Shown here piece after piece: positions 30,794-46,513 of a stretch of DNA of 64,000 nucleotides. A model generated the notes under the pieces. The model did not search any database. It had not been told where the DNA came from and saw nothing but the letters and a program-made list of their open reading frames with translations. Made by a program: the position numbers and the translations under genes. Each line of letters begins with the position of its first letter. The stretch's first letter is position 1. The DNA is from an uncultured Pseudomonadota bacterium (GTDB lineage: Bacteria; Myxococcota_A; UBA796; SXON01): NCBI GenBank assembly GCA_903844155.1, contig CAIMSU010000103.1:1-64000 (forward strand), given 5' to 3'.

Positions 30794-33167
30794 GCGCGTC
30801 GCCGCCTTCCTCGGCGTTGGCGGGACGGAAGTCGCGGACGTAGCGCGAGGCCGGGAGCCAGCGGCGGACGGCCTCCTTCAGCACCCCGGTGCCGTGGCCG
30901 TGGAGCAGGAAGACGACGCCGGTGCGGTTCGTGTGGCTGTCGAAGAACGGCTCGATGGCGTTGAGCGCCTCGTCGACCCGAAAGCCACGGAGATCGAGGG
31001 TGTTTGGCGCGACGGCCACGTGGACACCTGCCAGCGGCTCCATCTGCGACGCCGTCTTTGCCGCCGCGACAATGACACGCGCGTGATGCCGCTTCTCGCC
31101 CCCGCCCATCGCCGAGAGCTCGGCCAGGCCCACCCAGCTCGCCATCCCCCTGGAGGAGACCTTCGCCTTCTCCCTCGCGATCTCGACGACGTCGACCACG
31201 CCGAGGAGCGCGTGACGCACGCGCTGCCCCACAACCAGCGCCTCCGTCGGCGGACTCGCGACGGGGACCGGCGCCGCCACGGCACCCTCGTCGCCCGCTA
31301 CCGCCACGGCCCGCAAGCGACGCAGCGCCTCGTTCGCGCCGCGCAGGCTAGGATCGGCCTGCAACGCCGCGACCAGCGCCTTCACCTCGTCCTCGCGCTC
31401 GCGCATCCGCGCCCGGGCCTTGTCGACCTCCTCGGCCACGGCCCGCTCGATCCGTCGCGCCAGCACCGCCTCCCGCGCCGCCATCGTCGCCATCTGCTCG
31501 GCGACCGTCGCGCGCTCAGCCCGCAGCCGCTCGGTCTCGCGCCGCGCCTGGCCACGCTCCTCGTCCAACGCCTCCAATTGCCGCGCCAGCGCCCTCGCCG
31601 CCTCGTCCATCACCCCCTCGGCCCGCTCCAACACGGCCTCCGGCATGCCCATCTGCCGGGCGATCGCGAGCGCGTGCGAAGCCCCTGGCGCGCCCGTCTC
31701 CAGACGGAACGTCGGGCGTCCATCCACGAATTGTGCGGCGGCGACGGCGAACCTCAGATCCGCGAGCGCCAACCCCTTCATCTCGGGAAAGTGGGTCGTG
31801 ACCGCCACGCGCGCGCCGGCGTCGACGAGCGCCTCGACCACCGCTCGCGCGAGGGCCGCACCCTGCGTCGGGTCGGTGCCGGCCGTGATCTCGTCGATGA
31901 GGACGAGGGCGCCCGGCCTCGCGGTGGCGATGGCGCGCGTGAGGGACTGGACGTGCGCGGAGAACGTGGAGAGGCCGTCCGCGACCGACTGCTGATCGCC
32001 AATGTCGGCGAAGATCGGGTCGAAGACGTCAACGCGGGCGCCTGGAGCGCAAGGCAACGGGAGCGCCGCGCGGACGAGGACGGCGAGGAGGCCGAGGGTC
32101 TTGAGCGCGATGGTCTTGCCGCCAGCGTTCGGTCCGGTGAGGACGAGGCCGGGCGTTCGAGGCGTCAATTCCAGGTCGTTGCCGACGACGTTGCGGGCGA
32201 GCGGGCGCTCGGGGGTTGGCAGCGCCGCCAGCGCGAGCAGCGGGTGCCGCGCGTCCTTCACGGTGAGGACGCCGTCGGTCTGCACCTGTGGCAGCGTTCC
32301 GGCCAGCCGCGACCCAAATCCGACCCGCGCGCACACGAGATCGAGCCGCACCGAGGCTGCCAGTGAGGCCAGGATCGGGGCTCGTCCGCGCCCGACCTTG
32401 TCCGAGAGCTCCCCGAGGATCCGGCGTTCCTCGCGGTACAGCGCCGACTCCGCCTCGGTGAGATCGTTGTGCAGCTCCACCACCGCCGCGGGCTCGACGT
32501 AGCTGGTCTCGCCGGACTGCGAGGTGCCGTGAACGATGCCAAGTCCGCGTCGAAAGCTCGATTTCACGGGGAGGACGAAGCGGCCGTTCCGCTCGGTGAC
32601 GTAGCGGTCCTGGAGCATCGCGCCGAGGCCGTCATCGCGGATCAGCTCGTCGAGGGTGGCCTGGATGCGGGTTCGGAGGCTCTCCTTTCGGCGACGCAGC
32701 TCGTCAAGGAGCGGGTACTCGACGCCGGACAGCTGGCCGAGGGCGTCGAAACTACGGCGCAACAACGCCAGCAGTTCCGCGTTGACGTCGATGGGGTGAG
32801 CGACGAGGAAGACGGCCGGAGCTTCGTCTGCGACTGACTCGGCCCAGCGGCGCAGGATCGACAGGCCCTCCAGCCCGCCGGCGACGGCGCGGAGGTCCTC
32901 ACATTCGAGCGTCAGCCCGCGGCCAGCCCGCTCCACGGCGCCGCCGATGTCCAGTACGCCACCGACGGGACATCGCAGTCCGCCGCGTTCAAGCTCCCAG
33001 AGTTCGCGCACCTCCTGGTACGCCGCGCGAATGGCCGACGCGTCCGAGAGCAACGGCCAGGTCGCAGCCGCCCGCGCGCCCGCAAGCGTGCGACAGCCCG
33101 CCGCCAACGCCACGAGGACGTCGGGCCAGCCGAGCACGAGGAGCGAGCGTTCGAGGTCCGGGGACAT
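30771..33167 (-). CDS. mutS2: endonuclease MutS2
   Basis: GPNAGGKTIALKTLGL, DIGDQQS, STFSAHV, C-terminal Smr LDLRGFRVDEAL...LHGHGTGVLK. Confidence 0.95.
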   Translation of the reverse strand: MSPDLERSLLVLGWPDVLVALAAGCRTLAGARAAATWPLLSDASAIRAAYQEVRELWELERGGLRCPVGGVLDIGGAVERAGRGLTLECEDLRAVAGGLEGLSILRRWAESVADEAPAVFLVAHPIDVNAELLALLRRSFDALGQLSGVEYPLLDELRRRKESLRTRIQATLDELIRDDGLGAMLQDRYVTERNGRFVLPVKSSFRRGLGIVHGTSQSGETSYVEPAAVVELHNDLTEAESALYREERRILGELSDKVGRGRAPILASLAASVRLDLVCARVGFGSRLAGTLPQVQTDGVLTVKDARHPLLALAALPTPERPLARNVVGNDLELTPRTPGLVLTGPNAGGKTIALKTLGLLAVLVRAALPLPCAPGARVDVFDPIFADIGDQQSVADGLSTFSAHVQSLTRAIATARPGALVLIDEITAGTDPTQGAALARAVVEALVDAGARVAVTTHFPEMKGLALADLRFAVAAAQFVDGRPTFRLETGAPGASHALAIARQMGMPEAVLERAEGVMDEAARALARQLEALDEERGQARRETERLRAERATVAEQMATMAAREAVLARRIERAVAEEVDKARARMREREDEVKALVAALQADPSLRGANEALRRLRAVAVAGDEGAVAAPVPVASPPTEALVVGQRVRHALLGVVDVVEIAREKAKVSSRGMASWVGLAELSAMGGGEKRHHARVIVAAAKTASQMEPLAGVHVAVAPNTLDLRGFRVDEALNAIEPFFDSHTNRTGVVFLLHGHGTGVLKEAVRRWLPASRYVRDFRPANAEEGGDALTVVRLA

Positions 33168-33266
33168 GGTGGGGGCGGCGGTATCAAGGCTGGAGGCTGG
33201 AGGGGGGCATCACGCGGGCCCCAAGCCGCAGAACCGGACCCGCTCGGACGCGGTAATTAGGTTGGC

Positions 33267-33956
33267 ATGCCCGTCCCCGTCGCCGCTCACCCGCTCCTCG
33301 TCGCGCGTTTCCTTTCGGTCCAATTTCCGCGCCCTCTCGGGGACCTCGCCGACCCGCTCATCAGCGCCCTACTGGCCCTCGACAGCGCGGAGCTCGTCGC
33401 CGAATACGTCTCGATGTTCGACGGCGAACCGATCACCAGCGCCGTCGGTCCCTCCGGCGATCCGCTGCGGCTCGCGATCCGCGACCTCCTCCGACACGGA
33501 GGCTTCAAGCCCACCGGCCGCTCCAAGCCCGCCTCCGAGTACCTCCTCAAGGCCGCCGCCGACGGCTTCCTCAACCCCATCAACGCCGCAGTCGACGCCT
33601 GCAACGCCGTTTCGCTACACAGCGGCTTCCCGATCTCGGTCGTCGACCTCGACCGCACCTCCGGCCCGCTGCGCATCGCCGTCGCCCCCGACCCGGCAGG
33701 AAGTGCCGTCGACTTCGTCTTCAACGCCTCCGGCCAGACCATCGACATCGACGGTCTGCTCTGCCTTTTCGACGATGACGGCCCCTGCGCGAACGCCGTC
33801 AAGGACGCGCAGCGCACGAAGACCACGAACGCGACGACGCGCACCCTCTCCGTGATCTGGGGCGTGCGCGGCCATGAACCGCGCCTCGACCTGACCGCGA
33901 GGTGGTACGCCGCCCTCCTTCGTCAGCTCGGCGCGGAGGTGACGTGCGCCCCCTGA
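33267..33956 (+). CDS. B3/B4 tRNA-binding-domain-like protein
   Basis: PASEYLLKAAADGFLNPINAAVDACNAVSLHSGFPISVVDLDR. Confidence 0.75.
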   Translation: MPVPVAAHPLLVARFLSVQFPRPLGDLADPLISALLALDSAELVAEYVSMFDGEPITSAVGPSGDPLRLAIRDLLRHGGFKPTGRSKPASEYLLKAAADGFLNPINAAVDACNAVSLHSGFPISVVDLDRTSGPLRIAVAPDPAGSAVDFVFNASGQTIDIDGLLCLFDDDGPCANAVKDAQRTKTTNATTRTLSVIWGVRGHEPRLDLTARWYAALLRQLGAEVTCAP

Positions 33957-34609
33957 CGCCACGGCTCGCGATGGTCGCCGACGAGGTTCGCCGATGTACC
34001 ACTTCTGCAGAGAGCAATTGTGGTACATCGCCGCTCGTCGTCGACGTGGGGTGTGACCACGCGGGGCTCTCCCTCACGTTGCTCCACGAGGGGCTGCCTG
34101 CGCGGATCGTAGCAGTAGATTGCAACGCCGCGCCGTGCGCCCGAGCCCGCGCGAACGCCCTGGCCCTCGGCCTGCCGCTCGACGTCCGGCAGGGCGGGGG
34201 GCTCGATCCGGTCGAGGGATTCGTCGAGGTGGTCAGCATGTGCGGCGTCGGGTCGGGGACGGCGGTGGAGGTGCTGGAGGGGGCGCGGGATCGCGTTGGC
34301 GCGGCGGTGGTGCAGCCCAACGACGATGGAGCGGGCGTGCGCGCTTGGGCCCGGGGCGCGGGGTGGCGGGTTGCGCGCCAGCGGGCGGTCTGGGATCGGG
34401 GGCGGTACTACGGGGCGCTGGTGCTGGCGCCGGGGGCCTACGATCTCGACTACGCCGAGCTCATGTGGGGAGTCGGAGCGCAGGTGGACCGGGAGGCGCT
34501 GGGGCGACGGCTGCGGGGTGAGATCGCGCGACTTGGCGCGTTTCCGGCGAAGGAAATGGAGCTGCGGTGGGCGAAAGAGGCGTTGCGGCGCCTGGGACTG
34601 CCAGGTTGA
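33944..34609 (+). CDS. trmK: tRNA (adenine22-N1)-methyltransferase-like protein (TrmK family)
   Basis: LVVDVGCDHAGLSLTLLHEG...DVRQGGGLDPVEG...VVSMCGVGSG...AVVQPND; palindromic element copy 1 in the N-terminal linker. Confidence 0.75.
   Translation: MRPLTPRLAMVADEVRRCTTSAESNCGTSPLVVDVGCDHAGLSLTLLHEGLPARIVAVDCNAAPCARARANALALGLPLDVRQGGGLDPVEGFVEVVSMCGVGSGTAVEVLEGARDRVGAAVVQPNDDGAGVRAWARGAGWRVARQRAVWDRGRYYGALVLAPGAYDLDYAELMWGVGAQVDREALGRRLRGEIARLGAFPAKEMELRWAKEALRRLGLPG
33993..34029 (+). repeat. 37-bp palindromic element copy 1, inside trmK in frame
   Basis: GATGTACCACTTCTGCAGAGAGCAATTGTGGTACATC. Confidence 0.9.
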
Positions 34610-34718
34610 CCGGGCCGCGGACGGGCTGCGAGGGAGGATGTACCACAATTGCTCTCTGCAGTTGTGGTACATCGGCCGCGGCCACGATGGCGCAGAAGAT
34701 GCACGGGTCGCCGGTCAT
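34461..34718 (-). pseudogene. truncated HIT-family gene (N-terminal CxxC only)
   Basis: MTGDPCIFCAIVAAA then palindromic element and unrelated sequence antisense to trmK; ATGA coupling to the upstream gene. Confidence 0.5.
34637..34673 (-). repeat. 37-bp palindromic element copy 2
   Basis: minus strand GATGTACCACAACTGCAGAGAGCAATTGTGGTACATC, 35/37 identical to copy 1. Confidence 0.9.
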
Positions 34719-35183
34719 GGTCCGAGCAGCTCGCGCAACCTCGCCGCCCCAACACCTCGCAATTCTTCGGATTTCTTGCCCGTCAACTTCGCCAGCACCT
34801 TCACCGGGTCCGCCTCCTCCTGCTTGAGCGCGCGGTAGGCCTTCTCGTTCAGGTCCAGCGCCGCAAACCGCTCTTTCACCAGCTCCCAGGCCTTCTTCTC
34901 GCGCTCGCCCAAAAACTGCTCCTTGAGCTTGAGCAGCGCCGCGGCCTCCCGCGTCCGCCCCGCCGCCTTCAACTCCTTGCACCGCACGTCCGACCGCGAC
35001 GTGAGCTGGCCGATCGAGGCCTCCTTCGGGATCTCGACGCGTTGGGCTCGCAATTCCGCGATCCACGCGCTGCTTAGCGGATCCGGCAGCAATGCGGTGG
35101 CGACGGGCGGATCCGCGGGCTTCGGGGCTGGCAGTCCCTTGTCGGCGAGCGCGCCGAGGAGGGCGTTTTTGAGGTCGGACATG
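34715..35183 (-). CDS. hypothetical cytoplasmic protein (charged, helical)
   Basis: MSDLKNALLGALADKGLPAPKP...; ATG 35183. Confidence 0.6.
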
Positions 35184-35218
35184 GGCGGCTGGTAACCGAC
35201 GCGTGGTACCCTCAGCGG

Positions 35219-35682
35219 ATGGTGACGGCGCTGCTCCTCCTCGCTGCATTTCCGAGCGCGGAGGCTGAGACGCCGGACTCCCGCGACCCCTTCGTCGCGC
35301 CGCAACCCGGCGAACTCTCGGGGTGCACCCTGGTCGGCACCGCGTGGAGCGACGGATCCCGGGCGGCCCGAAACCCGTGATCGACACCGACGGCCCCGGC
35401 TGGCTCCCCGGCTATCCGCTCCAGAGCGACACGCTCGTCGGCACCGAGCTCGGCGGGAGCGCGCCCGCCGCGCTGATCATCGACCCCTCCGGGACCGCGC
35501 ATACCCTGCGCCTCGGCGCGTACATCGGTCAGAACTGGGGCACCGTTACGGCGATCGGTCCGGAGAGCATCACCGTCACCGAGGAATACCAGGCCATCGA
35601 CGGCGTCCTCGTCGTCAACCCGATCGTGATCCCGCTGGGCCGGGCCGCCCCTCCGGTTGCGCCCGCGCCGCCTTCCCGTTAG
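35219..35682 (+). pseudogene. PilP-like pilus assembly lipoprotein region, split between two frames
   Basis: MVTALLLLAAFPSAEAETPDSRDPFVAPQPGELSGCTLVGT... in one frame, then LVGTELGGSAPAALIIDPSGTAHTLRLGAYIGQNWGTVTAI in another; junction GTGA at 35377. Confidence 0.5.
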
Positions 35683-35810
35683 CCCCCGCGGCCGCCCATC
35701 CTGGGCGACCCGCGCCGGCCCGCGATGCCCATCCTGGGCTTCCAAGGTACCCCCGACGCGGATCTCTTGAGCCTCGCAAGGGCTCGTTTCGCACCCAAGG
35801 AGCCATACAC

Positions 35811-36428
35811 ATGGCACGTTATCGTGGACCGCGGCTGAAGAAATGCCGTCAGGTGGGCGTGGTGCTTCCCGGACTCACCAATGCTGGCTCGCTCAAGCGC
35901 GCCAACCCTCCGGGACAGCACGGCGCTCGTCGCAAGTCAAAATCGTCGGACTTCAAGGAGCGCCAGACCGAGAAGCAGAAGCTGCGCCTGCACTTCGGCG
36001 TGCTCGAGAAGCAGTTCCGCCGCTACGTCACCGAGGCCAGCCGGCGCAAGGGCCCGACCGGGCGCATCCTCATCACGCTGCTCGAGTCCCGGCTCGACAA
36101 CATCGTGTGGCGCCTTGGCCTCGCCGAGACCATCCCCGGCGCGCGCCAGCTCGTCGTGCACGGGCACATCACCTGTGACGACGTGCGTACCGACCGCCCC
36201 AGCTTCCACGTGAAGCCCGGCATCGTCGTTGCGATCCACCCGAAGTCGCGCGAGAAGCCCTTCATCCAGGCCAAGCTTGAGCACGCGAACAGCCGCGTTC
36301 GCCCCGGCTTCCTCGAGTTCGACCCGGCCAAGGCCGCGGGCAAGCTCGTCGTCCAGCCGGAGCGCGAAGACCTGCCGTTCGAGTGCGATCCCCAGAAGAT
36401 CGTCGAGTTCTACTCGCAGCAGATCTGA
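35811..36428 (+). CDS. rpsD: 30S ribosomal protein S4
   Basis: MARYRGPRLKKCRQVG...ESRLDNIVWRLGLAETIPGARQLVVHGHI. Confidence 0.98.
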   Translation: MARYRGPRLKKCRQVGVVLPGLTNAGSLKRANPPGQHGARRKSKSSDFKERQTEKQKLRLHFGVLEKQFRRYVTEASRRKGPTGRILITLLESRLDNIVWRLGLAETIPGARQLVVHGHITCDDVRTDRPSFHVKPGIVVAIHPKSREKPFIQAKLEHANSRVRPGFLEFDPAKAAGKLVVQPEREDLPFECDPQKIVEFYSQQI

Positions 36429-46112: not shown

Positions 46113-46513
46113 CACCCCAACCGACCACAACTGCGGAGAGCAGAAGTGGTAGATCCGGCGACGCGCGGTTCGGCGGCATGCTGGCAGTCGGTATCGTCGC
46201 GGGCGCGCTCGGCGCGTGGGCTGGCTGGTTGGCGCGTGGAGAGCTTGGCCCTCCGCACGGCACCGAGCAGTACACGCTGACGGAGGCGGTGCCGCTGCGG
46301 TCCGACTCGAGGGTCGGGGTCCTGCCGGCGGGGACCACGATGTACTTTGACCGGGGCTTTGACGAGGGGTTCGGGCGGTGGGTGGTGTACGTGAACGCGA
46401 ATGAGCGACCGCCCACGGCGCGTGGCCCGGCTGACGCGATCGCCCCGCTCTGGGCTGACCTGAGCGGCGACGATCCGCCTCCCGTGTGTGTCCTGGCCGG
46501 AGCGACGCGCTGA
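46109..46513 (+). CDS. hypothetical single-TM protein
   Basis: GTGA overlap start at 46109 (alternative ATG 46178); palindromic element copy 3 within first codons. Confidence 0.5.
   Translation: MTPQPTTTAESRSGRSGDARFGGMLAVGIVAGALGAWAGWLARGELGPPHGTEQYTLTEAVPLRSDSRVGVLPAGTTMYFDRGFDEGFGRWVVYVNANERPPTARGPADAIAPLWADLSGDDPPPVCVLAGATR
46119..46155 (+). repeat. 37-bp palindromic element copy 3 (diverged)
   Basis: AACCGACCACAACTGCGGAGAGCAGAAGTGGTAGATC; same CCAC-N3-TGC-rGAGA-GCA-N3-GTGG layout. Confidence 0.75.

What the first reader, a model, noticed from the sequence alone, without database searches (positions are those of the whole stretch)
33993..34029. Palindromic element translated in frame inside TrmK
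Seen: the element lies between the N-terminal helix (PRLAMVADEV) and methyltransferase motif I (PLVVDVGCDHAGL), keeps the frame open, and reads RCTTSAESNCGTS. In copy 3 the surrounding ORF reads the element in the same phase (PTTTAESRSGRS), so TT[ST]AES[NR][CS]G is shared by two unrelated proteins. Known: Rickettsia palindromic elements insert in frame in proteins. This could be an independent case in a distant lineage.
Basis: partly seen in the sequence, partly recalled or inferred. Interest (0 to 1): 0.72.

Follow-up and report, generated by a model that had tools for sequence, protein, structure and literature searches.

The report
Mobile palindrome translated inside TrmK gene
A short palindromic repeat, one of about 65 copies scattered through this bacterial genome and probably spread by a dedicated transposase-like enzyme, sits in reading frame inside a tRNA-methyltransferase gene, and similar repeats sit in frame inside about 17 other genes, so the protein products should carry short stretches written by mobile DNA.

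Summary
Window 33993-34029 is a 37-nt hairpin palindrome lying in frame in a TrmK-family gene (start GTG 33944 or ATG 33971), in the loop between helix 1 and strand 1. It belongs to a dispersed family (A; 65 sites in this genome, not seen in 57 relatives). The family flanks a single-copy divergent RAYT-like Y1/HUH transposase gene, whose predicted structure best matches E. coli TnpA-REP bound to its hairpin. A second (79 sites) and a third (28 sites) palindrome family flank paralogous RAYTs. About 20 units lie in frame inside 18 genes (GluQ-RS, RlmD, CaiB, CzcA, a DNA-repair helicase, DTW and others). Element-free homologues of several hosts lack 10-24 residues exactly there. TrmK itself is the least clean case: congeneric linkers vary (13, 16, about 30 aa; here 17), so no exact 13-aa insertion can be shown. 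Most copies are extragenic (about 15% intragenic against about 76% of random positions), as expected if only in-frame, loop-tolerated insertions survive. In-frame palindromes are known from Rickettsia RPEs and from GTAG/CGTC REPs in other bacteria. What is new here is untagged, TIRYT-like families with their transposases and empty sites. Translation and mobility are inferred.

The parts
33993..34029 (+). Family-A palindromic unit GATGTACCACTTCTGCAGAGAGCAATTGTGGTACATC, in frame inside trmK; encodes (R)CTTSAESNCGTS
   Evidence: (CM E 3.6e-13)
33944..34609 (+). trmK-like gene (tRNA adenine-22 N1 methyltransferase family) that hosts the unit; GTG 33944 or ATG 33971 start; SD-like GGAGG just upstream of GTG 33944
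   Evidence: AF2 pLDDT 85; helix 6-21, loop 22-30 with lowest confidence at 23-25, strand 31-35
34637..34673 (-). Second family-A unit, inverted, in the intergenic space 27 nt after the trmK stop; 90% identical to the copy inside trmK over 48 nt
46119..46155 (+). Third family-A unit, between the stop (46112) of an aminotransferase-like gene and the likely start (ATG 46178) of the next gene; probably untranslated
33267..33956 (+). Upstream B3/4-domain gene overlapping the start of trmK

Best explanation
The element is one copy of a REP-like family (A) spread by a cognate single-copy Y1/HUH tyrosine transposase (RAYT/TIRYT type). Proposed mechanism: the 37-nt palindrome folds into a hairpin in single-stranded DNA, for instance on the lagging-strand template. 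RAYT-A (G000:C113:46393-47175), itself bracketed by two inverted copies, binds and cuts next to the hairpin with its catalytic tyrosine, and a copy is joined elsewhere. The unit has no stop codon in most frames (read from the consensus: about 5 of 6 for family A, 2 of 3 per strand for family B). Insertions that keep the host frame and fall in a surface loop therefore survive and are translated as 10-14 extra residues, and others are purged. In TrmK it fills the loop between helix 1 and strand 1. Shown here: palindrome, dispersal, flanking of the RAYT gene, frame, empty sites in other host genes. Inferred: RAYT-catalysed movement, translation, neutrality for TrmK.
For: 65 family-A sites in 8.1 Mb, 31 of them in close pairs, with 0 control hits; in 57 relatives only scattered 2-mismatch hits near control level. 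Two inverted A units bracket a Y1_Tnp gene: 27-nt match between its flanks, E 5e-5. NCBIfam REP_Tyr_transpos (NF047646) E 5.3e-9, below its 80-bit cut-off. AF2 model (pLDDT 83.7): best PDB match 4er8, the REP-associated tyrosine transposase with REP hairpin, Foldseek E 6e-4, VIA Z 13.8 over 144 residues, rmsd 3.1. The pairing repeats: RAYT-B (48% identical) is flanked by family B (79 sites), RAYT-C by family C (28 sites), and two RAYTs of congener G001 each by a different palindrome. In-frame units in about 18 genes. Element-free homologues: GluQ-RS 23-25 aa shorter in four congeners, CaiB 9-10, RlmD 12 (three of four), LMF-like protein 12, CzcA paralogue 10, DTW 24, helicase 14. Family-B copies in the stop-containing frame occur at gene ends, where they supply the stop codon.
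Against: No movement, cleavage or translation was observed. The TrmK linker is naturally variable in the genus (13, 16, about 30 aa), so an empty TrmK site of defined length cannot be shown. Junctions are blurred (net gains of 9-14 aa for most single units, 24 in DTW; no clear target duplication). The canonical GTAG/CGTC foot is absent. In-frame hosts were picked by a codon-usage screen with equal frame on both sides, so copies that broke a gene could be missed; 13 same-strand, different-phase copies looked mostly like gaps between genes but were not all resolved.
Confidence: 0.85

Rival explanations
1. The palindrome is a native part of trmK kept as an RNA hairpin that controls translation or mRNA decay of trmK, with the peptide as a by-product.
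For: Stable RNA hairpin, -21.2 kcal/mol, z -5.4, early in the mRNA.
Against: Same sequence at 64 other places with unrelated neighbours; none of the three TrmK orthologues found in the genus carries it; foreign codon usage.
Confidence: 0.05
2. The repeats are MITE-like elements moved by an unrelated transposase, and the RAYT genes are merely places where copies landed.
For: No GTAG/CGTC foot; no biochemical link between RAYT and repeat.
Against: Three RAYT paralogues in the genome are each bracketed on both sides by a different family, and two RAYTs in a congener by others again; chance landing would not give one family per gene. Predicted fold matches the REP-hairpin-bound RAYT structure.
Confidence: 0.07
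3. Translation of TrmK starts downstream of the element, so the element is really a 5' untranslated repeat.
For: Di Nocera et al. 2013 (PMC3733652) warn that many N-terminal intragenic REPs may be mis-annotated starts; two of the three orthologues have ATC or ATT at the aligned first residue.
Against: The N-terminal helix RLA.VA.EV upstream of the element is conserved in all congeners; the first downstream start lies inside motif I; GTG 33944 has an SD-like GGAGG and ATG 33971 is also upstream.
Confidence: 0.03

Closest known systems
TIRYT/TIR repeats and TnpA-Y1 subclass 2.1 (Di Nocera 2013, PMC3733652; PMC6006769)
   Same: Y1/HUH tyrosine transposase gene flanked by inverted, partly self-complementary repeats; some form dispersed families and dimers; subclass 2.1 proteins have C-terminal HTH or Bac_DnaA_C-like domains, and RAYT-A residues 180-261 match DnaA domain IV (1j1v Z 11.1, 82 aligned, rmsd 2.5).
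   Different: Three multi-copy families in one genome with in-frame intragenic copies; no GGGGWSAS motif seen in the A, B or C units; subclass assignment is by fold only, Pfam gives HTH_23/MerR_1 at E about 0.1.
GTAG and CGTC REPs with RAYTs (REPtrons), including intragenic ones
   Same: Short palindromes, singles and head-to-head pairs, one family per RAYT, mostly extragenic, some in frame in ORFs, some supplying the stop codon.
   Different: No GTAG or CGTC tetranucleotide at the 5' foot of the hairpin; different host lineage.
Rickettsia palindromic elements (RPE)
   Same: Palindromic repeats inserted in frame in unrelated conserved proteins, which should add a peptide.
   Different: RPEs of about 150 bp as reviewed in PMC10969869 against 37 nt here; different lineage; here a candidate transposase is identified.

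Membership tests
REP (GTAG/CGTC class) with cognate RAYT | Short palindrome dispersed in many copies | tested here: met
   65, 79 and 28 sites for families A, B, C; 0 control hits in the pattern searches
REP (GTAG/CGTC class) with cognate RAYT | Copies flank a single-copy Y1/HUH tyrosine transposase gene | tested here: met
   HxH motif (H49, H51) and Y109 invariant in 7 paralogues; fold 4er8
REP (GTAG/CGTC class) with cognate RAYT | GTAG or CGTC tetranucleotide at the 5' foot of the hairpin | tested here: not met
   Units A and B begin GATSTA / GAYSTA on both strands; GTAG occurs only within the 3' arm of some A units
REP (GTAG/CGTC class) with cognate RAYT | Predominantly extragenic, often in inverted pairs | tested here: met
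   about 20 of about 135 screened units in frame in genes against 76% of random positions; 31 of 65 A units within 80 nt of another
TIRYT / TnpA-Y1 subclass 2.1 | C-terminal HTH or DnaA-like domain and inverted repeats flanking the gene | tested here: met
   DnaA domain IV match at residues 180-261; flanking repeats
TIRYT / TnpA-Y1 subclass 2.1 | GGGGWSAS motif in the flanking repeats (found in the majority, not in all) | tested here: not met
   not seen in the A, B, C units by reading the aligned sequences; not a strict requirement of the class
RAYT/TIRYT | Transposase binds, cuts and rejoins its hairpin | not testable with these tools
   needs purified protein
Rickettsia palindromic elements | In-frame palindrome in coding genes, absent from orthologues | tested here: met
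   for other hosts; for TrmK itself the length comparison is inconclusive
Rickettsia palindromic elements | Sequence relationship to RPE families | not tested
   no RPE sequence was compared; no Rfam match in window 33000-36000

The most novel reading that the evidence does not exclude
In this genus, several RAYT/TIRYT families running in parallel act as a standing generator of small in-frame protein insertions: their units read open in most frames, so intragenic copies are fixed often enough to remodel surface loops of core enzymes, and some have been co-opted.
Probability: 0.15. Interest if true: 0.75.

Novelty: new variant of a known kind. Interest (0 to 1): 0.5.

Why it matters
REPs are named extragenic. 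Here three RAYT-linked palindrome families in one genome have entered about 18 genes in frame, several of them core enzymes, with element-free homologues available for comparison. Unlike Rickettsia RPEs, each family has a candidate mobilising enzyme in the same genome, so how mobile DNA adds peptides to proteins becomes testable: cut the hairpin with its own RAYT, and assay host enzymes with and without the insert.

Tried and rejected
Orthologues of TrmK in viral contigs: none. phmmer of RAYT-A against PDB: none; a predicted structure was needed. Rfam: no match. NCBIfam on five proteins, partly as taxonomic markers: nothing, so the phylum was not settled. First G001 repeat pattern was mistyped and found nothing; the corrected one gave 40. 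Target-site duplication: not resolvable from homologues at 60-84% identity. Chance palindrome: rejected. Some alignments failed for truncated or off-target frames and were redone; the acyl-CoA ligase, ketosynthase, TatD and carbamoyltransferase sites remain too variable for a clean empty-site count.

Full report
Check of the observation. The 37-nt palindrome GATGTACCAC-TTCTGCAGAGAGCAATT-GTGGTACATC lies at 33993-34029. It is inside an open frame that codes for a TrmK-family methyltransferase, and its codons read R-CTTSAESNCG-TS. The window holds three full copies against 0.01 expected. As RNA it folds at -21.2 kcal/mol, z -5.4. Codon usage in the TrmK frame drops to -1.01 inside the element from 0.20 and 0.21 outside. 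Possible starts GTG 33944 and ATG 33971 are both upstream, and the N-terminal helix upstream of the element is conserved in the genus. The AF2 model of TrmK (pLDDT 85) has helix 6-21, strand 31-35, and its lowest confidence at residues 23-25, in the element.

A dispersed family. A covariance model built from 35 units finds 65 distinct sites in the 8.1-Mb assembly (counted), 31 of them with a neighbour within 80 nt, some pairs forming hairpins of 67-80 nt. The pattern shows no comparable family in 57 relatives of the genus, family and order (single two-mismatch hits occur at about the rate of the control pattern). The best-scoring match to the trmK copy and its flanks in the genome is the inverted copy 27 nt after the trmK stop.

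A cognate transposase. One Y1_Tnp gene at G000:C113:46393-47175 is bracketed by two inverted family-A units, about 55 nt upstream of its ATG and within about 10 nt of its stop. It is a divergent RAYT: NCBIfam REP_Tyr_transpos E 5e-9, below cut-off. Its AF2 model has the RAYT-REP hairpin complex 4er8 as best PDB match, and a C-terminal domain like DnaA domain IV. The pattern repeats within the genome. A paralogue on C268 is bracketed by family B, ATCAAAAcTGACGwCGTCAgTTTTGAT, 79 sites. A paralogue at C113:28371 is bracketed by family C, 28 sites. Congener G001 has two RAYTs with two other palindromes, one with 40 sites. Units A and B share the outer GATSTA...TASATC frame although their cores differ. 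HxH and tyrosine residues are invariant in seven paralogues.

In-frame copies in other genes. A codon-usage screen and a check of family C find about 20 units in 18 genes read through without a stop. Family A: TrmK, ligase-associated DEXH helicase, DTW protein, TatD, ketosynthase-like. Family B: GluQ-RS (two units), carbamoyltransferase (two units), CaiB-like, RlmD, CzcA, acyl-CoA ligase, LMF-like, a membrane glycosyltransferase-like protein, CobW, and one further membrane protein. Family C: P-type-ATPase-like, carboxypeptidase-like and one unassigned (names for family C, the LMF-like and the glycosyltransferase-like proteins are from reading the sequence, not from a family hit). Identities of the others. 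Homologues from the genus, or a paralogue for CzcA, lack the peptide at the same place: GluQ-RS 23-25 aa, RlmD 12, CaiB 9-10, LMF-like 12, CzcA 10, helicase 14, DTW 24. TrmK is less clean: the linker is 17 aa here and 13, 16 and about 30 aa in three congeners.

Selection. Random positions in the same regions fall in an open, equal frame in 76% of trials, against about 15% of screened units. So the repeats are mostly extragenic, and the intragenic ones are the tolerated remainder. Family-B units in the frame with a TGA occur at gene ends and supply the stop. These two points fit purging of harmful insertions, but the screen favours equal-frame cases and 29 of the 79 family-B places were not listed and so mostly not examined.

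Mechanism. The best-supported account is dispersal by the cognate tyrosine transposase acting on the single-stranded hairpin, as shown in vitro for E. coli and S. maltophilia TnpA-REP (PMC8266576), followed by selection. For the present genome the pairing of each repeat family with its own transposase gene, the fold, and the empty sites are shown; cutting, joining and translation are inferred.

Comparison with the known. In-frame palindromes in proteins are known from Rickettsia (Ogata 2000, 2002, as reviewed in PMC10969869). Intragenic GTAG and CGTC REPs were reported in several species by Di Nocera et al. 2013 (PMC3733652), who also described TIRYT genes with untagged inverted repeats. Gene-end stop donation by REPs is in the same paper. 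The C-terminal DnaA-like domain is described for TnpA-Y1 subclass 2.1 (PMC6006769). I did not find a report of TIRYT-type families inside coding genes, but supplements were not readable. Hence: new variant of a known kind. The taxonomy is not settled: the nearest named records are MAGs labelled 'uncultured proteobacterium' or carrying a doubtful label.

Copy 3.

Noticed in passing
G000 contigs C74, C101, C113, C259, C268, C321, C323, C335, C349 (starts); C31, C37, C256, C260 (ends); loci L014, L017, L022, L025, L033-L038: Many contigs break inside paired family-A hairpins: the repeats appear to fragment the assembly.
   Followed up: partly
L283, L286, L288, L289, L290; L284, L287 (G001); L285 (G004): Five RAYT paralogues in one genome, at least four with different flanking repeats; congener G001 has two with others again. 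Looks like repeated birth of RAYT-repeat pairs within a genus.
   Followed up: partly
L224:2523, L228:2533, L233:2544, L241:2533: Family-B units at gene 3' ends supply the stop codon (endings ...YQK*...YQN*...VEK*).
   Followed up: partly
window 33993-34029 and 34637-34673: Inverted repeat pair, 90% over 48 nt, bracketing most of the trmK gene: could allow inversion of the gene body or gene conversion between the copies.
   Followed up: no
G000:C361 (L321) and L249: Two CzcA/CusA paralogues about 80% identical, one with and one without a family-B unit: a natural empty-site pair within one genome.
   Followed up: yes
L345:1501-1531 (G001): The different repeat family of congener G001 also has an in-frame copy, in a glycosyltransferase-like ORF (...KMGRIRGGRILPILVCVGRLD...).
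   Followed up: partly
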